A stretch of DNA of 64,000 nucleotides from Moraxella porci DSM 25326 (GTDB lineage Bacteria; Pseudomonadota; Gammaproteobacteria; Pseudomonadales; Moraxellaceae): positions 124,001 through 188,000 of the forward strand of contig NZ_MUYV01000005.1 of the NCBI RefSeq assembly GCF_002014855.1, given 5' to 3'. The notes under the pieces are model-generated. The model saw only the letters and a list, made by a program, of their open reading frames with translations, was not told the origin of the DNA and did no database searches. The translations under genes and the position numbers were made by a program. Positions 34,948 through 58,834 of the stretch are shown piece by piece (positions within the stretch are counted from its first letter, which is position 1; each line of letters begins with the position of its first letter).

Positions 34948-35316
34948 TTAAAAAAATAAAATCAACGCCCAGACGATGGTTAAGGCTGATAATGACACAA
35001 ACTGCGCAGCGCTGCCCATGTCTTTGGCGCGGCCAGATAAAGGATGATGCTCAGTGCTAACGCGATCAACCACCGCTTCGATGGCGGAATTGAACAGCTC
35101 AACAATAATACAAAACAAGCAAACAAAAATCATGAATGCGCGCTCAAGGGTGCTGACATCCAAGATAAAAGTCAATGGGATAAGAACAAGATTAATCCAG
35201 ATGATCTGGCGAAAAGCAGCTTCATGTCGATAAGCTGCAACAAATCCTGCCATCGAATAACCAAAGGCATTGATGATACGGCGGATGCCAGTTTTGCCTT
35301 TTTGGGGTGAGTACAT
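34948..35316 (-). CDS. dgkA: Diacylglycerol kinase DgkA
   Basis: This is a small trimeric inner-membrane kinase that recycles diacylglycerol (made when phospholipid headgroups are transferred to periplasmic glucans or lipid A) to phosphatidic acid. Its signature ELFNSAIEAVVDRVSTEHHP is intact, with YRHEAAFRQIIWIN at the N-terminus and three membrane helices. Length is 122 residues. Phosphoethanolamine transferase reactions also release diacylglycerol, so the presence of eptA 1.6 kb away on the same strand is functionally sensible. Confidence 0.95.
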   Translation of the reverse strand: MYSPQKGKTGIRRIINAFGYSMAGFVAAYRHEAAFRQIIWINLVLIPLTFILDVSTLERAFMIFVCLFCIIVELFNSAIEAVVDRVSTEHHPLSGRAKDMGSAAQFVSLSALTIVWALILFF

Positions 35317-35344: not shown

Positions 35345-36043
35345 TTAAGCAGTCTGAATACCAAAAAAATGCCCAATCAAACTGGTCGCAGCCAGAGCAA
35401 CCACACCCCAGATCACCACACGAGCCATCGCAAGCATCTTATTGGCACCGCCCAGATGCGCTGAGAGCATGCCCAGTAGCGCAAGTCCTACCAATGTCGC
35501 GATCCATAAGGCTGTGATGCGCATCGGCTGAGGTGCCGCATAAACGCACAATAGCGGTAAGATCGCACCCATCACAAATGACGCTGCCGACGCCAGTGCG
35601 GCTTGTAGGGGATTGGCAGACAGATCCTCATTTAGTCCGATCTCATCGCGTGCATGCGCTTGTAGTGCATCGTGTTTGGTCAGAGCTTCAGCGACTTTGG
35701 CAGCAAGATCGGCATCCAGACCTCTGGACTGATAAATTTGGGTCAGTTCTTTTAGCTCATTGTCAGGGTTGTGCATCAGCTCATATGCTTCTTTGGCAAG
35801 ATCGGCCTTTTCGGTGTCTGCTTGCGATGACACGGAGACATATTCACCAGCTGCCATACTGATCGCACCAGCGATGAGTGATGCCACACCAGTCAAGATC
35901 AGCGTCTGCTCACTGCTGCCTGCAGCAGCAACACCCATCAGTAGGCTTGCGGTGCTGATCAGCCCGTCATTGGCGCCCAACACTGTGGCGCGCAGCCAGT
36001 TATTACGATTGCTAAAATGAGGTTCGGGATGGGTGCTTCTCAT
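35345..36043 (-). CDS. VIT1/CCC1 family metal-ion transporter
   Basis: This membrane protein is related to plant VIT1 and yeast CCC1, which move Fe(II) or Mn(II) across membranes. The first helix motif RATVLGANDGLISTASLLMG and the second GAISMAAGEYVSVSSQADTEK are diagnostic. A helical, charged cytosolic linker follows with acidic residues that bind metal in homologues, then three more helices. The frame begins at 36070, but the ATG at 36043 (MRSTHPEPHFSNRNNW) has AGGT upstream and matches the family start. Length is then 232 residues. Confidence 0.9.
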   Translation of the reverse strand: MRSTHPEPHFSNRNNWLRATVLGANDGLISTASLLMGVAAAGSSEQTLILTGVASLIAGAISMAAGEYVSVSSQADTEKADLAKEAYELMHNPDNELKELTQIYQSRGLDADLAAKVAEALTKHDALQAHARDEIGLNEDLSANPLQAALASAASFVMGAILPLLCVYAAPQPMRITALWIATLVGLALLGMLSAHLGGANKMLAMARVVIWGVVALAATSLIGHFFGIQTA

Positions 36044-36118
36044 GATGATTACCTGTGATAAGTATGACATTAGTATAACATAGGGTAGCGTTAAGTGTTT
36101 GAATGTTGATCAATCGGT

Positions 36119-36195
36119 TTAGGTCATACTGCCAGATCTGTGAAAAAATAACAGTGCCAAGCTTCCTGCGATCAGCCAAGCTGTGCATAAAGATG
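36119..36195 (-). other. Out-of-frame 3' remnant of the pap2 gene
   Basis: Directly beyond the pap2 stop, the minus-strand +1 frame continues with FSHALASLCTAWLIAGSLAL and FFHRSGSMT before a TAA at 36119-36121. Joined after GDHF this restores GDHFFSHALAS, the normal end of this PAP2 subgroup, and a last membrane helix. One T appears to be missing from a run (five Ts present, six needed). Confidence 0.65.
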
Positions 36196-36846
36196 CTAAG
36201 GCATGACTGAAAAATGATCGCCAATCAGCATCTTATAGCCGCCCATGACAAACCCAAGCATCGTGGTGATGAGGATAATTTTTTTGCGATGATGACTAAA
36301 TTCAGGCACAAAAGCAAAGGCATACAGTGCAAAACCGACACTGGCATGAGCAGCAGGAAAGCATTTGGCAGGTAGGCCCAAAATCATACTTTGTATCAAA
36401 GAAACATAAGGCAAATCCCCACCAAACACATCAAGACTGACAGGACAAGCGACATGAGTCACCGCCTTTGCTATTCCAACCACCAATGGCGTACTCACAA
36501 GTGCCAAGCTTAAATACGCCAAAGAGTGTGTGGATAGATGGCGACAAGGATAAAACACGCCAAACTGCCGCTTGAGCTTTCTGACCAGATAAGCTGCGAT
36601 GATATAAATCTCTAAAGCAATCAAAAGGTATTTTGGTGCAGTATAGAAAATGATAAATAAAGCCGTATTTTGCTTATCAATCAGCCACTGCCCATCGCCT
36701 TGATATGCCAACCTAGCCAGTGACAGATCGATCATACTATGCTCAATAAACAGCGAGGTGACCACCAATAGCACCAGCATGATCCAGATGCTGACCATCA
36801 GATTACGCGTAGTTATGGCTGTATTAGAAGATGAACGATGGAGCAT
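36196..36846 (-). CDS. PAP2 superfamily phosphatase, probably frameshifted near its C-terminus
   Basis: This is a membrane-embedded acid phosphatase-like protein that normally dephosphorylates lipid pyrophosphates or phosphatidic acids. Motifs 1-2 are THVACPVSLD and KCFPAAHASVGFAL, and motif 3 begins GGYKMLIGDHF. The protein then ends abruptly with SVMP, missing the final helix; the lost part is present in another frame (see 36119-36195). It is the neighbour downstream of the mcr-like eptA, the same order as mcr-1-pap2 on resistance plasmids. The 216-residue product retains the motif-3 histidine but probably folds poorly. A sequencing error in the T run is the main alternative. Confidence 0.8.
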   Translation of the reverse strand: MLHRSSSNTAITTRNLMVSIWIMLVLLVVTSLFIEHSMIDLSLARLAYQGDGQWLIDKQNTALFIIFYTAPKYLLIALEIYIIAAYLVRKLKRQFGVFYPCRHLSTHSLAYLSLALVSTPLVVGIAKAVTHVACPVSLDVFGGDLPYVSLIQSMILGLPAKCFPAAHASVGFALYAFAFVPEFSHHRKKIILITTMLGFVMGGYKMLIGDHFSVMP

Positions 36847-36894
36847 GGAACACCTTGATCAACAAAATTAATAAAATGATTAAAATTCAATGAC

Positions 36895-38517
36895 TTATTC
36901 GATAAACATCGCTTGGTTTTCCGTCGCTTTGGTCTTGACATCAAATAAACGCAGCAAAGTCGGCGTGATGGCATCATGAGTTAATGGTGCTTGATTGCTT
37001 ACTGCATGGATGGCTGGGTTTGCTGTCCATAAAAATGCAGCAACATGCTTTTGAGCTTTGGGAGCAAAGGTGTTTGGCATACCATGCAAATACACGCCAT
37101 TTTCACCCAAGCTTTCACCGTGGTCGGATACATACAATAGGGTGACATCATGGCTGGCTTGATGTGTTTTTAGCCAATCGATGGTTTGTTTTAAAAAGTC
37201 ATCGGTTGCCACCAAGGCATTGTCATAGGCGTTGATTACATGGCTGGTATCGCATTTGGCCAGATCGTTATCACGGCAGACGGGCGTAAATTTTTCAAAG
37301 GCTTCATTATAGCGTTTATAATAAGCTGGCCCGTGGTTGCCCATTTGATGCAGCACGATCAGCACATCTTGATTGCTGTTTTTGGCGGTTTGTGCCACAT
37401 AGTCATCCAGTCCGATCAGCATGCCAATGTCGCGGCATTCTTGATGGGCGTTGGTGCACTCATGATTAAGATCAGAGGTTTTATAATTTTGATACAAATC
37501 GGCAGGGAGCTTATCCATCACACCTTTGGAATCCGAATTATTATCACGCCACAGAACATTCACACCCAAGCGATGCAAGGTATCTAGGCTGTTCTCATGA
37601 TAATTGGCGGTATCAACATTATAGTCATCTGCACCCAAATAGCTGAACATGCAAGGTACAGAATATGCGGTTGATGTCCCACAGGATATGACATTTTTAA
37701 AACTGGTCAGATGATCCATGCTGGATAACTGCACAAAAGTGTCTTTTGAATAGCCGTTTAATGACACATGATCAGCGCGAGCCGTCTCACCGACCACCAT
37801 TACAATAAGCTTAGGTTTTCGTTGGGTGCTTGTAGTGGTCTGCGCAGCATCTTTGGCATGATAAGTTAGGTCTTTTGGAGCGGTAGCTTTTTTATATTCG
37901 ATGCTGGCAAGCTTGCCGACGGCATAGATTGGCATGGCAGGATTGGTATAAGAACGCAGCGGTTTATGCTCTCTAAAAAAGCTGGCAAAAGCCTCGCTAA
38001 AGCTTAAAATCGGCACCAAAATCAAACCTAGGCTCAATAATAAATATCCTAATCTTTGAAATGCGTTGGTTTTAAAATTGGCAAAATGAACTGGCAGCTT
38101 TAAAATCAGTAAACTTGGTAACACGCCCAATAACAGTATGCGCACCAAAAAGCCTAAGTTAAGTAGATCTTTGGTTTCGCTGCTGTCGGTTTGTAGAGCG
38201 TTTTGTAGCATATTGGTGTCATACACCGTGCCATAAGTGTCGGTAAAATAACTGGTGATGGCGGCAACCATGATCATAAAGATCAAAACAAATTTTAGCG
38301 TATATCGATAGCTAAACAAGCCAATCACAAGTGCTAAAACACCGCATAACACCACTGTCAATGAAGCAACAAATAACAAATGATCTGCAATGGGATAAAC
38401 CAAAACCACCTGCTTAAAAAAAGTAACATTGGCACTAATGGTTAAAAATACGGCGACAATCAGCATTAGTAAATATGGGTTGATTGAGCGGTGTTTTGGG
38501 TGAAGGAAGTTAAGCAT
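36895..38517 (-). CDS. eptA: Lipid A phosphoethanolamine transferase, MCR-1/MCR-2-like
   Basis: This inner-membrane enzyme transfers phosphoethanolamine to lipid A and so lowers polymyxin binding. Five N-terminal helices precede a periplasmic alkaline-phosphatase-fold domain. From the ATG at 38517 it has 540 residues, against 541 for MCR-1. The catalytic set is complete: E244 (GETARADH), T283 nucleophile (SCGTSTAYSVPC), K331, H395 (QMGNHGPAY), and D465, H466, H478 (YVSDHGESLGENGVYLHG). Cysteine pairs 279/289, 353/361 and 414/422 match the three MCR disulfides. Long stretches such as SYFTDTYGTVYDTNMLQNAL and WRDNNSDSKGVMDKLP agree with MCR-1 as remembered. The TTG at 38538 is rejected. No insertion sequence flanks it, so it appears chromosomal and native. 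Confidence 0.95.
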   Translation of the reverse strand: MLNFLHPKHRSINPYLLMLIVAVFLTISANVTFFKQVVLVYPIADHLLFVASLTVVLCGVLALVIGLFSYRYTLKFVLIFMIMVAAITSYFTDTYGTVYDTNMLQNALQTDSSETKDLLNLGFLVRILLLGVLPSLLILKLPVHFANFKTNAFQRLGYLLLSLGLILVPILSFSEAFASFFREHKPLRSYTNPAMPIYAVGKLASIEYKKATAPKDLTYHAKDAAQTTTSTQRKPKLIVMVVGETARADHVSLNGYSKDTFVQLSSMDHLTSFKNVISCGTSTAYSVPCMFSYLGADDYNVDTANYHENSLDTLHRLGVNVLWRDNNSDSKGVMDKLPADLYQNYKTSDLNHECTNAHQECRDIGMLIGLDDYVAQTAKNSNQDVLIVLHQMGNHGPAYYKRYNEAFEKFTPVCRDNDLAKCDTSHVINAYDNALVATDDFLKQTIDWLKTHQASHDVTLLYVSDHGESLGENGVYLHGMPNTFAPKAQKHVAAFLWTANPAIHAVSNQAPLTHDAITPTLLRLFDVKTKATENQAMFIE

Positions 38518-38531
38518 AAGACACCATGGGC

Positions 38532-38561
38532 GATCCAAAAAAAATTGGATGCATTATATCA
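38532..38561 (-). promoter_or_regulatory. Promoter and palindromic leader of the mcr-like eptA
   Basis: The minus strand has an extended -10, TGATATAAT (38561-38553). Immediately after it comes a 6-bp inverted repeat, ATCCAA/TTGGAT (38549-38532), covering the likely transcription start. It could be an operator or a 5' mRNA hairpin. No -35 hexamer is apparent. Confidence 0.5.
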
Positions 38562-38823
38562 CAGCTGCCTTAAATAAATGAAGCTTAAATTTATCTCAAA
38601 TGCGCAATAACTTTATGCCTAAAATCAGCCATCAATCATCGCAGTCAAGGATAGTCATGATAAAGCAGGCTCGGCGTATTTTGGGCGAGCATATCATCGG
38701 GTGTCGTCTGTCCAAGTCGGCTAGTGCATCAAACAGGGTGATGGCGATACCAATACCAAAGCATTATTGATTGTAGTATAATACAGTCTTTAATTATGAT
38801 AATTGAATTGGTGGAAGTTTGAT

Positions 38824-39717
38824 ATGTTTAAAAAATTCATGGCATGGATGCTGATTGCCTTGCCCTTATGTGCATCAGCCAATGACATTTTGCTATCAAA
38901 GGCAATATTTGATTTGGCACCTGTAGCGTGGCAGATGGAGGATGTGGCACAGGTGGATCGATCGCATTACCAAAAGCGGATGCTCACTTGGCAAACAGGA
39001 GGCGGTCAGGTGATGGTAGATGAGCATTATTTTGCCAAAGAGCCAGTATTTACTCAGCAGGATATCATCAGCTCTGAGTTGGGTGTGAATGAATTGGGAT
39101 TTTTATCAGCATTCGTCAAAGTCACCCCTCAAGCAGCCATACGCCAAGAAAAAGCCACCCAGCAAGCACTAAAATCAGATCGAGGCAGTGCACATCTTTC
39201 TATCGTGGATGAATCTTTTACCAAAGTATATGGTACATTGAGCTTGTATGTGCCAATCGATGGTGATGAGTTTGTGCTTAGCTTGACTGATCCACTGCTA
39301 TTATCCACGCATCAAAACTTACAGTTCGTGCTGTCTGAGTATGTCCCAACAGACGGCTATACGCTCAAAAGTATCACTCGCATTCCACCACCTGAATCCA
39401 TACAGCATCCAGTGTATGTTGCAGATTGGGGAATCAATCAAGACGACATCAAACAGCTCGCCATCATCAATCAAGGCGATATGTATGGCATCGGGTCGGG
39501 TGCCTATATGCTCGTAGCGACACTCAAGCCATCAGCGATCGCCAAAAAAGATGCGTTGATGTTTGATACCAGTGTGGGTTTGATGATTCATCATCCGCAC
39601 AAGTCGTTTTGGCATGATTTTGCACCAAGTTATGAAGTTCAGCTTGCTTTGCCGGATAATCAAATTGCCATTGCGATGAGTTTTGAGCCTTCTATACTGA
39701 CATCATTGTTTGAATAA
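38824..39717 (+). CDS. Hypothetical secreted or periplasmic protein
   Basis: The family is not recognised. The 297-residue product has a clear Sec signal peptide (MFKKFMAWMLIALPLCASA, cleaved about residue 19) and no further membrane segment, so it should be periplasmic or secreted. The mature protein is mostly beta-like, with GTLSLYVPIDGDEFVLSLTD, QNLQFVLSEYVPTDGYTLKS and GIGSGAYMLVATLKPSAIA. It has no cysteines in the mature part and no metal or catalytic motif that can be named. A TTG upstream in frame is rejected because GGTGGAAG is correctly spaced before the ATG at 38824. A TATAAT at 38777-38782 is a possible -10. It is divergent from eptA, and the two share a 300-bp intergenic region. 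Confidence 0.8.
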   Translation: MFKKFMAWMLIALPLCASANDILLSKAIFDLAPVAWQMEDVAQVDRSHYQKRMLTWQTGGGQVMVDEHYFAKEPVFTQQDIISSELGVNELGFLSAFVKVTPQAAIRQEKATQQALKSDRGSAHLSIVDESFTKVYGTLSLYVPIDGDEFVLSLTDPLLLSTHQNLQFVLSEYVPTDGYTLKSITRIPPPESIQHPVYVADWGINQDDIKQLAIINQGDMYGIGSGAYMLVATLKPSAIAKKDALMFDTSVGLMIHHPHKSFWHDFAPSYEVQLALPDNQIAIAMSFEPSILTSLFE

Positions 39718-39748
39718 AATTATCCCCAGTGCTAGACTGGGGGTAATT
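39718..39748. terminator. Hairpin between convergent genes before argS
   Basis: A 12-bp stem (39718-39729 with 39737-39748, one T-G pair) encloses a 7-nt loop. It lacks a long T run but is well placed to end both the upstream plus-strand gene and argS. Confidence 0.6.
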
Positions 39749-39760
39749 ATCTGAATTAAT

Positions 39761-41488
39761 TTACATCTTCTCAACGGTCTTGATGCCAAGTAAATCAAGA
39801 CCTTGCTTAAGCGTCTTGGCGGTGAGATTGGCAAGCAGTAGGCGGCTGGTTTTGGTTGGCTCATCGGCTGTTAGGATTGGACAGGCTTCATAAAAGCCTG
39901 AGAACGCACCTGCCAGCTCAAACAGATATTGGCAGAGCAGATGTGGCAGTCCATCTTTGGCGACGGCGAGTAGCACTTCTTCGAACTGCAATAATTTCAC
40001 CGCCAAAGCGCGCTCTTTATCATCAGTGATGCTGATTTGACCTGCAAGCGTATCGCCATCCACACCCGCTTTGGCAAAAATCGAGCGAATACGAGTATAA
40101 GCGTACTGCATATACGGAGCGGTGTTACCCTCGAACGACAGCATATTATCCCAATCAAACACATAGTCGGTATTGCGATTTTTTGACAAATCGGCATATT
40201 TGACCGCACCGATGGCGACAGCATCGATGACTGCTTGCTTTTTGGTATCATTAAGTTCGGTGTTTTTGTCATTGATTAAGACAGTAGCACGCTCGATGGC
40301 TTCATCTAGCAGGTCGTTTAATTTGACCGTGCCGCCAGTACGAGTCTTGAACGGCTTGCCGTCTTTGCCAAGCATCATCCCAAAGGTAAAATGCTCAAGG
40401 CTGAATGACTCAGGCACAAAGCCTGCCTTGCGAGTGATGAGCCATGCCTGTGCCATGTGCTGTGCTTGACGAGCGTCGGTAAAGACCAACGCACGATCGC
40501 CCTGCAAGGTCTCATAGCGGTATTTGGCAGCGGCGATGTCGGTGGTGGTATATAGATAGCCGCCGTCTTTTTTCTGGATGATGACGCCCATCGGCTCACC
40601 GTCTTTGTTTTTGAATTCATCCAAAAATACCACGACAGCACCATCATCTTCGACCGCAAGACCTTTGTCTTTGAGTGCTTGCACCACGACAGGCAGCATC
40701 GGATTGTATAGGCTTTCACCCATGACATCATCAGGTGTCAAAGTGACATTCATACGCTCATAAGTGGCTTGGCACTGCGTCATGGTGATATCGACAAGCT
40801 TACGCCACATACTTAAGCAGTACTCATCACCGCTTTGGAGTTTGACGACATAGTTACGAGATTTCTCGGCAAAGGCTTCATCATTATCATAATTTAGCTT
40901 AGCTTGACGATAAAACTCTTCGATGTCAGACAAATCCATATCGGTGGCGTTTTCGTTTTGCATCTTTTCAAGATAAGCAATCAACATACCAAACTGCGTA
41001 CCCCAGTCACCAACATGATTGGCACGAATCACGGTATTGCCTAGAAACTCAAGCGTACGCACGACGCTATCACCGATGATGGTGGAGCGTAGATGACCGA
41101 CGTGCATTTCTTTGGCGACATTTGGTGATGAATAGTCCACGACCACGCGCTGATGTTGGTTGGCATTCACACCCAGTTTGGCATCGCTATTGGCGACCGT
41201 AGTGCTATTTTCTATCCATTTATTATTTAAGAAAATATTGATAAATCCCGCACCAGCGATTTCTACTTTACTGGCGATATCGCTGATGTCTAGCACATCG
41301 ATGACGCTTTGGGCGAACTCACGAGGATTTTTGCCCAGTTTTTTGGCAGCGCCCATGATGCCATTGGCTTGATAATCGCCAAACTGTGGCTTGCCAGACT
41401 GACGCACGAGCGCTTGGACATTGCTGTCTGCACCTGCACTGATCATGGCTTGTGTGATTTTGTCATTTAAAAGTTGTTGAATATTCAT
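39761..41488 (-). CDS. argS: Arginyl-tRNA synthetase
   Basis: This class I synthetase charges tRNA-Arg. The N-terminal tRNA D-loop recognition domain ([15 protein letters not shown]) is followed by the HIGH-type motif [19 protein letters not shown]. The catalytic domain has [12 protein letters not shown] and [18 protein letters not shown] in place of KMSKS, as in many ArgRS. The anticodon-binding domain begins near [15 protein letters not shown]. The ORF continues 18 nt upstream, but the internal ATG at 41488 gives the canonical N-terminus (575 residues). The leader carries three ATTGG repeats on the plus strand (41514, 41524, 41535). Confidence 0.97.
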
Positions 41489-42379: not shown

Positions 42380-42470
42380 TGGCGGAAGCTGAGAGATTCG
42401 AACTCTCGGTGGGCTATAAACCCACGCCGGTTTTCAAGACCGGTGCATTCAACCGCTCTGCCAAGCTTCC
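42380..42470 (-). tRNA. tRNA-Ser (UGA), copy 2
   Basis: A 91-nt class II tRNA with encoded CCA has acceptor stem GGAAGCT/AGCTTCC and discriminator G. The anticodon loop is CTTGAAA (anticodon TGA) and the T arm is GAGAGTTCGAATCTCTC. It is identical in its mature sequence to the copy at 42511-42601, from which it is separated by 40 bp. Confidence 0.97.
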
Positions 42471-42510
42471 GTAAGCGGTATTCATCACAAGGATGATAAA
42501 ATCAGAATAA

Positions 42511-42601
42511 TGGCGGAAGCTGAGAGATTCGAACTCTCGGTGGGCTATAAACCCACGCCGGTTTTCAAGACCGGTGCATTCAACCGCTCTGCCAAGCTTC
42601 C
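42511..42601 (-). tRNA. tRNA-Ser (UGA), copy 1
   Basis: This is the promoter-proximal copy of the tandem pair, with the same class II structure, long variable arm, TGA anticodon and encoded CCA. It should read UCA and UCG (by wobble also other UCN) codons. Confidence 0.97.
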
Positions 42602-57205: not shown

Positions 57206-58708
57206 TCAAGAACCAAAGCTTGCAAACAAATCATAGTCGCTGGCTTCATCAATCGTCACCGTCAGTATATCGCCAGCTTTGACTGTCGCATCGATATTAT
57301 CCACATACACATGACCGTCAATCTCAGGGGCATCAGCATAACTACGACAGATGGCGATATTTTCTTCGGTATCAATCTCATCGACGAGCACGACTAGGCG
57401 TTTACCCACTTTTTCGGCAAGCTTATCAGAGCTGATTTGTTGTTGAAGTGCCATCAGTTGCTCATAGCGTTCTTGTTTGATGTGCTCAGGTACAGGGTTT
57501 GGCAAGTCATTTGCCACCGCACCTTCGACTTCTGAATAAGTAAAGCAGCCGACACGATCAAGGCGAGCTTGTTTTAGCCAGTCAAGTAGGTATTCAAAAT
57601 CTTCTTGGGTTTCGCCAGGGAAGCCCACTACAAAAGTCGAGCGAATGACGATATCAGGGCAAATCGCGCGCCATGCACGGATACGCTCAAGGGTGTCTTC
57701 GCTCATCGCAGGGCGTTTCATGGCTTTTAGCACACTTGGGCTGGCGTGTTGGAATGGAATGTCAAGGTAGGGCAACAGTCCGCCTGTACCACCTGATTTT
57801 GCCATGCTATCAGCCATGAGTTGTACAACTTGATCGACATGGGGATAAGGATAGACATAGTGCAGGCGTACCCAGATGCCTAGCTTTGCCATCTGCTCGC
57901 ACAGATCAAAAAACTTCGTCTTAATCGGCTGACCATCCCAAAATACCGTCTTGTACTTGGTATCGACACCGTAGGCTGAGGTATCTTGGGAGATAATGAG
58001 TAGCTCTTTGACACCGCTATTTTTGAGTGCGACGGCTTCTTTCATTACGCCATCAATGGTACGACTGACCAAATCACCACGCAATGATGGGATGATACAA
58101 AATGTACAGCGATGATTACAGCCTTCTGAGATTTTTAGATAAGCATAATGCTTGGGTGTCAGCTTGATGCCTGCATCGTTGATAAGATCGATTTTTGGAT
58201 CATAAGTCTTTGATTTGGCAGGCTTTGGTACATGATGAGTGACGGCTGATACCACCTCATCATAGGCGTGTGCACCAGTGACTGCCAGCACCGATGGGTG
58301 CATGGTGCGGATTTTGTCGGCATCTTTGCCCAGGCAGCCAGTGACGATGACTTTGCCGTTTTTGTTGATGGCTTCACCGATGGCATCGAGCGACTCTTGG
58401 ACGGCCGACTCAATAAAACCACAGGTATTGACCACGACCAAATCCGCACCGTCATAATCTTTGGCGACCTGATAGCCTTCACGAGTCAGCTCGGTGATGA
58501 TGCGTTCGCTATCGACGAGTGCCTTTGGACAGCCTAAGGACACAAAGCCAACTTTGGGTGCACTACCTGAGGCTTGTGCGATGGCGGCAGCGGATTCATC
58601 AATGCTGCGGTTTTGGTTGTGATTGGCTTTATGGTGATAGGCAGGTGTGTTGGGATTTGGCGTTTGGGCTGGGTTTTTTGGATCAAATACGGTTGGCGTG
58701 CTGGTCAT
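57206..58708 (-). CDS. rimO: Ribosomal protein uS12 methylthiotransferase RimO
   Basis: This radical-SAM enzyme adds a methylthio group to an aspartate of ribosomal protein S12. The MTTase domain starts [18 protein letters not shown] with [17 protein letters not shown] and VTGCLGKDA (three cysteines of the auxiliary cluster). The radical-SAM motif is [19 protein letters not shown] and the TRAM domain is near the C-terminus ([14 protein letters not shown]). At 500 residues it has an N-terminal low-complexity extension of about 50 residues, rich in Asn, Pro and His, before the first domain. This may partly reflect a start further inside. Confidence 0.96.
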
Positions 58709-58834
58709 AGTTGGCTCTTGGCTGACAGATTTTGAATAAAAAATTGGGGGTATTTTAGCATAAATTGATTTAAATGGTGTGCTACAATTGTATGATAAAA
58801 TTGTTTGTCTATAAAACAGAATGGATTTTAGTTG

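What the first reader, a model, noticed from the sequence alone, without database searches (positions are those of the whole stretch)
36119..38561. Chromosomal mcr-1/mcr-2-like phosphoethanolamine transferase followed by pap2
The protein at 36895-38517 has 540 residues, all MCR-1 catalytic residues, all six disulfide cysteines, and long stretches matching MCR-1 as remembered. Downstream is a PAP2 gene, the order found in the mobile mcr-1-pap2 unit. No ISApl1-like or other insertion sequence flanks the pair, and base composition matches its surroundings. It is therefore probably a native Moraxella gene of the lineage from which mobile mcr genes were captured. The host may be intrinsically less susceptible to polymyxins.
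Basis: partly seen in the sequence, partly recalled or inferred. Interest (0 to 1): 0.8.

Follow-up and report, generated by a model that had tools for sequence, protein, structure and literature searches.

The report
Native Moraxella EptA, an mcr-1 cousin
A pig-type Moraxella chromosome carries an enzyme gene that probably decorates its outer membrane and blunts polymyxins; it is a cousin of the mobile resistance genes mcr-1 and mcr-2, not one of them, and its partner gene is broken.

Summary
In detail: 36895-38517 (-) encodes a 540-aa phosphoethanolamine--lipid A transferase with the MCR-1 catalytic residues and disulfide cysteines, and a PAP2 gene follows. Two corrections. (1) It is not an mcr-1/2/6 gene. 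It is 63% identical to MCR-1.1, misses the NCBIfam cut-offs for MCR-1, -2 and -6, and forms its own fully supported clade with four metagenomic proteins, beside the MCR-1/2/6 clade. Grouping it with MCR-1/2/6 without those four is rejected (AU p=1e-50); the two clades as sisters are not (p=0.2). It is probably the MCR-POR type reported from M. porci. (2) pap2 is broken: the 216-aa ORF loses frame at residue 212, where an intact 97%-identical relative has 242 aa. The transferase-pap2 pair recurs in other Moraxellaceae, so it is no mark of the mobile unit. The nearest held relatives (ArgS protein 92-96% identical) carry mcr-2- and mcr-1-type genes at another site, so transferase type looks uncoupled from host kinship. 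Ordinary as a gene; the swapping is the interesting part. Polymyxin susceptibility was not testable here.

The parts
36895..38517 (-). eptA/icr-type gene: phosphoethanolamine--lipid A transferase, 540 aa
36196..36846 (-). pap2 ORF (PAP2 lipid A phosphatase-like), 216 aa, out of frame after residue 212
36119..36214 (-). remainder of pap2 similarity, in another reading frame (described only)
   Evidence: tblastn of P0241: residues 212-242 in a second frame
38518..38802 (.). intergenic region between eptA and the divergent 304-aa ORF; presumed to hold the eptA promoter, but promoter-like hits in the region are at chance level
   Evidence: 11 found in 36000-39800, 9.8 expected
38803..39717 (+). 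divergent 304-aa ORF with signal-peptide-like start, no Pfam family
34948..35316 (-). dgkA, diacylglycerol kinase, same strand, two genes downstream of pap2
35345..36070 (-). VIT-family gene between pap2 and dgkA
39761..41488 (-). argS (575-aa start); right flank of the eptA site, marker used for host kinship

Best explanation
This is a chromosomally encoded, intrinsic lipid A phosphoethanolamine transferase (EptA, of the Moraxellaceae 'ICR/MCR-like' kind) of a pig-type Moraxella close to M. porci. Inferred mechanism, recalled from MCR-1 and EptA: a membrane-anchored enzyme takes phosphoethanolamine from phosphatidylethanolamine onto its catalytic threonine (T283, at a zinc site with E244, D465 and H466) and passes it to a lipid A phosphate. 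That lowers the negative charge of the outer membrane and weakens polymyxin binding. The diacylglycerol left over would be recycled, for which dgkA lies close by; the adjacent pap2 is broken in this sequence. It is a relative of MCR-1/2/6, not a member of that clade. Shown here: sequence, residues, clade, synteny, the pap2 frame break. Inferred: activity, resistance, regulation.
For: Domains and residues. Generic NCBIfam phosphoethanolamine--lipid A transferase model met (694 bits, cut-off 500) while MCR-6, -1 and -2 models are not (796 of 1235, 783 of 1100, 777 of 1200). A full-length MCR-1 chain, 9nww_B, aligns over residues 9-539. Own clade with P0001-P0004 at 100/99 support, MCR-1/2/6 a separate clade at 100/99; both clades at 100 in the larger tree. 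Identity 62.66% to P0011 (MCR-6 by NCBIfam) equals the 62.66% printed for MCR-POR against MCR-6.1; 62.32% to MCR-1.1 against 62.13% printed. A passage of PMC10228737 states that mcrPOR conferred polymyxin resistance in E. coli, citing Kieffer 2017 and Poirel 2017. Same transferase-pap2 linkage elsewhere (with 51). Host: ArgS 99% to Moraxella sp. FZLJ2107, which PMC10228737 places near M. porci and M. pluranimalium by 16S rRNA (passages).
Against: No activity or MIC data. The M. porci sequence (WP_078317642) was not fetched, so identity with it rests on matching percentages; for MCR-2.2 the figure is off (61.44 printed against 62.18 here for the MCR-2-family protein of G001, which may be another allele) and the nucleotide figure to mcr-1.1 is 63.06 here against 63.88 printed. 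A sister relation of this clade to MCR-1/2/6 is not rejected (p=0.205), so 'nearest chromosomal kin of MCR-1/2/6' remains possible.
Confidence: 0.88

Rival explanations
1. It is a member of the MCR-1/2/6 lineage, a direct ancestor or donor of the mobile genes.
For: The three best-scoring NCBIfam models are MCR-6, MCR-1 and MCR-2; same gene order as mcr-1-pap2; nearest held hosts carry mcr-1- and mcr-2-type genes. Sister relation of the two clades not rejected, p=0.205.
Against: 63% identity, while MCR-1.1 is 82-83% identical to the MCR-2- and MCR-6-type proteins; placing the window protein with MCR-1/2/6 apart from P0001-P0004 is rejected, p=1.4e-50; the three curated cut-offs are missed by more than 300 bits each.
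Confidence: 0.04
2. The module pap2-eptA-304-aa ORF was recently inserted by a mobile element between the VIT gene and argS.
For: In G025 the VIT gene, and in G007 dgkA, nearly abuts argS with no eptA between them; 18 of 22 held genomes of the genus gave no transferase match. The 304-aa ORF was not found in the 22 genomes (without a positive control).
Against: No transposase or integrase domain in the ORFs scanned, no convincing flanking repeats; composition ordinary; transferase, pap2 and argS hits share longest-contig lengths 38356 and 10505, which suggests an older linkage to argS, though the ArgS of the second set (P0138) falls beside the Pasteurellaceae proteins and its host is unclear. 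Loss in G025 and G007 explains the gap equally well.
Confidence: 0.15
3. The pap2 frame break is a sequencing or assembly error and the pair is intact in the strain.
For: Sequence on both sides of the break stays 97% identical to intact P0241, as expected of an error or of a very recent change.
Against: Truncated pap2 next to mcr-2 is reported in a passage of PMC10285318 and in section 2.1 of PMC7559476, so real loss has precedent; no reads are available.
Confidence: 0.4

Closest known systems
MCR-POR, MCR-like transferase of Moraxella porci (WP_078317642; Kieffer 2017 was not held, seen only as cited in passages of PMC10228737 and PMC5893884)
   Same: Percent identities to MCR-6.1 (62.66, equal) and MCR-1.1 (62.32 against 62.13) fit; the nearest named ArgS belongs to a strain placed near M. 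porci
   Different: Sequence not compared directly; the MCR-2.2 and nucleotide figures differ by 0.7-0.8 points
MCR-1/MCR-2/MCR-6 family
   Same: Enzyme class, catalytic and disulfide residues, transferase-pap2 order, Moraxella kinship
   Different: 63% identity, separate clade, curated cut-offs not met, a different chromosomal site from the mcr-1/mcr-2-type genes of G017/G001
ICR-Mo of Moraxella osloensis (PMC5983563, passages) and other chromosomal Moraxella MCR-like transferases
   Same: Intrinsic chromosomal Moraxella transferase; M. osloensis AXE82_07515 is 61.4% identical to MCR-1 by a passage of PMC5893884, as this one is about 63%
   Different: ICR-Mo itself was not in my set; other chromosomal Moraxellaceae proteins fall in other clades
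EptA of Neisseria and of enterobacteria
   Same: Same domains; PDB 5fgn (Neisseria EptA) matches over residues 16-500
   Different: Much more distant: NCBIfam EptA model NF008619 415 bits of a 660 cut-off

Membership tests
Lipid A phosphoethanolamine transferase (EptA-type) | N-terminal EptA_B_N membrane domain plus Sulfatase-fold catalytic domain | tested here: met
   Pfam PF08019 and PF00884 above gathering score
Lipid A phosphoethanolamine transferase (EptA-type) | Catalytic Thr, Zn ligands, three disulfide pairs (positions recalled) | tested here: met
   All 19 listed positions identical to MCR-1.1
Lipid A phosphoethanolamine transferase (EptA-type) | NCBIfam NF028537 cut-off | tested here: met
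   693.6 bits, cut-off 500
MCR-1/MCR-2/MCR-6 family | Curated NCBIfam cut-off for MCR-1, -2 or -6 | tested here: not met
   783/1100, 777/1200, 796/1235; controls P0015 (MCR-1) 1299.5 and P0011 (MCR-6) 1305.7 pass their own models
MCR-1/MCR-2/MCR-6 family | Falls inside the MCR-1/2/6 clade | tested here: not met
   Separate clades, each 100/99; AU p=1.4e-50 against window+MCR-1/2/6 without P0001-P0004
MCR-1/MCR-2/MCR-6 family | Sister clade of MCR-1/2/6 | tested here: inconclusive
   Not recovered, not rejected, p=0.205
Mobile mcr-1-pap2 unit | Plasmid or insertion-sequence context with intact pap2 | tested here: not met
   No close plasmid DNA match (megablast); no transposase domain in the 15 ORFs scanned; pap2 out of frame
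MCR-POR of M. porci | Near-identity to WP_078317642 | tested here: inconclusive
   Percent-identity comparison only
Colistin resistance determinant | Raises polymyxin MIC | not testable with these tools
   No experiment possible

The most novel reading that the evidence does not exclude
The window-type transferase at the argS site is the ancestral EptA of the pig Moraxella group, and the MCR-1/2/6 lineage is a later arrival at a second site that displaced it. Pig Moraxella would then be exchange hosts of mcr-1/mcr-2 and not their ultimate source. On the ArgS tree the transferase types alternate: window type (window) beside MCR-1.36 (FZLJ2107/2109, by paper; whether these also hold a window-type gene is unknown), then MCR-2 type (G001), window type (contig of 38,356 bases), MCR-1 type (G017).
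Probability: 0.22. Interest if true: 0.6.

Novelty: new member of a known kind. Interest (0 to 1): 0.3.

Why it matters
It shows how to separate intrinsic Moraxella transferases from true mcr genes, and that conserved active-site residues and a downstream pap2 do not do so. If the swapping of transferase types between close pig Moraxella is confirmed, the origin of mcr-1 and mcr-2 becomes a testable question of direction of transfer: which site and which lineage came first.

Tried and rejected
Protein-based scan of genome contigs found no relative; the alignment-based scan did. Viral contigs with the alignment: no relative. Repeat search between VIT and argS gave only short, chance-like repeats; promoter-like and terminator-like hits were at or below chance. 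I first thought the pap2 score fell below the NCBIfam cut-off because of the truncation; the intact relative P0241 also falls below it (256 of 275), so that reasoning was dropped. blastn of the window against the Actinobacillus mcr-1 locus (L002) found only the transferase and pap2; I did not check that L002 holds ISApl1, so it is a weak negative. No structure was predicted: at 63% identity to a solved structure it would have decided nothing. Trees used subsets: 82 of 131 collected transferases, 33 of 131, and 27 of 120 listed ArgS hits plus 5.

Full report
THE GENE. 36895-38517 (-) is a 540-aa ORF with EptA_B_N and Sulfatase domains. The 19 positions I listed as catalytic, zinc, PE-pocket or disulfide residues of MCR-1 (list recalled) are all identical in the window protein. 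In a hand-picked alignment of 26 transferases, including MCR-1 and Psychrobacter, 18 of these 19 positions are invariant.

NOT MCR-1/2/6. Identity is 63.1% to MCR-1.1 over 537 residues, 62.7% to the MCR-2-family protein of G001, 63.1% to P0011 (MCR-6), 63.0% to the MCR-1-like protein of G017 and 35-38% to MCR-3.1, MCR-8.2 and MCR-9.1. NCBIfam: the generic lipid A phosphoethanolamine transferase model is met (694 of 500), MCR-1, -2 and -6 are not, while P0015 (MCR-1) and P0011 (MCR-6) pass their own models. In trees of 82 and 33 of 131 collected sequences the protein sits with metagenomic P0001 (91%), P0002 (82%), P0003 (76%) and P0004 (73%) in a fully supported clade; MCR-1/2/6 is another. Forcing the window protein alone into MCR-1/2/6 is rejected (p=1.4e-50); forcing the whole window clade to be its sister is not (p=0.205). 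The deeper order within the Moraxellaceae radiation is unresolved.

PROBABLY THE M. PORCI TYPE. Passages of PMC10228737 print identities for MCR-POR, from M. porci, of 62.13 (MCR-1.1), 62.66 (MCR-6.1), 61.44 (MCR-2.2) and 59.33 (MCR-OSL). The window protein gives 62.32 to MCR-1.1, 62.66 to P0011 and 62.18 to the MCR-2-family protein of G001; to P0022, L042 and P0023, a clade that I took for the M. osloensis type without a name to prove it, it gives 59.5, 60.0 and 61.2. The nucleotide figure to mcr-1.1 is 63.06 here against 63.88 printed. This fits the same type, not necessarily the same allele. A passage there says mcrPOR conferred polymyxin resistance in E. coli, citing Kieffer 2017 and Poirel 2017; the former is not held.

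THE PAP2 NEIGHBOUR. The pap2 ORF 36196-36846 has 216 aa and a PAP2 domain. An intact relative, P0241 (242 aa, 97% identical, 6 member sequences, 8 contigs), matches residues 1-212 in one frame and 212-242 in another. Intact copies therefore exist in close relatives and this copy is out of frame just after the conserved GDHF. Neither this ORF (226 bits) nor intact P0241 (256 bits) reaches the 275-bit cut-off of the lipid A phosphatase model. The transferase-pap2 pair is not special to mcr-1: of the five transferase loci that I searched for it with tblastn, four have it (G017, L064 M. atlantae, L042, L070) and G001 does not; and by eye 13 of the 120 listed transferase hits share their longest-contig length with one of the 57 pap2 hits (equal lengths taken as the same contig, an inference). 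The abstract of PMC7559476 reports that mcr-1 alone allows growth on colistin and that the linked gene gives maximal resistance; Choi 2020 (title only, in the reference list shown) says intact pap2 appears to be required. So the effect of the break is open. dgkA lies two genes downstream on the same strand; diacylglycerol kinase is described as essential for EptA/MCR-1 resistance (Purcell 2022, title only, reference list).

HOST AND SITE. No whole genome is held for the window. Among 348 genomes of the family (336 with a match), nuoM is nearest to G001 (91%), then G017 (82%), G025 (79%), G007 (77%); argS DNA gives G001 90%, G017 84%. G017's contig length, 2,336,058, equals the chromosome of FZFQ2102 (mcr-1.35) in Table 1 of PMC10228737 (passage), and its transferase is 97.4% identical to MCR-1.1. 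ArgS is 99% identical to that of Moraxella sp. FZLJ2107 (listed contig length 2,424,775, which that table gives for FZLJ2109; both carry mcr-1.36). Only 2 of 22 genomes of the genus, G001 and G017, carry a near transferase; 2 more have 35-36% relatives and 18 gave no match (sensitivity not separately tested). In the window the order is azlD-azlC-dgkA-VIT-pap2-eptA-304-aa ORF-argS. In G001 and G017 the mcr-2/mcr-1-type gene lies on the other side of azlD, some 5 kb from argS. In G025 the VIT gene and in G007 dgkA comes within about 150 and 20 bases of argS, and neither genome gave a transferase match.

DISCORDANCE. Window against G001: ArgS 95.7%, AzlC 93.4%, AzlD 92.3%, EptA 63.4%. Window against a metagenomic set sharing contig length 38,356: ArgS 88.7% but EptA 81.9%. 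On the ArgS tree the window groups with P0121-P0123, then G001 (95/76), then that contig (99/99), then G017 (94/85); window plus that contig as a pair, which the transferase tree shows, is rejected on ArgS (p=0.008). Transferase type is therefore uncoupled from ArgS kinship. Exchange is visible elsewhere: 57213-58713 is 97% identical to G017, although the other window stretches compared with it, apart from eptA, are 71-84% identical. Caveats: one marker places the metagenomic contig; the two types' presence in FZLJ2107/2109 is known only for mcr-1.36, from the paper; ArgS itself may have been exchanged (75-78% identity to Pasteurellaceae ArgS); and direction of transfer is not shown. I found no print account of this discordance in the listings, which is not an exhaustive search.

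VERDICT. A real, ordinary intrinsic EptA of a pig-type Moraxella, kin of but distinct from MCR-1/2/6, with a broken pap2. The sequence supports reduced polymyxin susceptibility only by analogy.

Noticed in passing
window 57213-58713: 97% identical to G017 (mcr-1-type host), although other window stretches compared are 71-84% identical to it; looks like recent recombination between species.
   Followed up: partly
window 39761-41488: ArgS is 75-78% identical to Pasteurellaceae ArgS (Glaesserella, Mannheimia, Actinobacillus), unexpectedly high for another order; suggests cross-family transfer.
   Followed up: no
window 38803-39717: Divergent 304-aa ORF next to eptA, signal-peptide-like start, no Pfam family, no match in 22 genomes of the genus (no positive control).
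   Followed up: partly
L042: Record titled Streptomyces cinereus JCM 3040 (2.8 Mb genome) carries a Moraxellaceae-type eptA-pap2 pair, and its genome (G003) was returned within the family of G001; probably mislabelled or contaminated.
   Followed up: no
L070:1197-3366: Record titled Dichelobacter nodosus VPI 2340 holds an eptA-pap2 pair nested among Moraxellaceae-type sequences: transfer or contamination.
   Followed up: no
L002:8001-9596: Actinobacillus sp. GY-402 chromosome carries a transferase 100% identical to MCR-1.1.
   Followed up: no
window 42380-42601: Two neighbouring tRNA-Ser(TGA) genes; two copies also align in G025 and G007.
   Followed up: no
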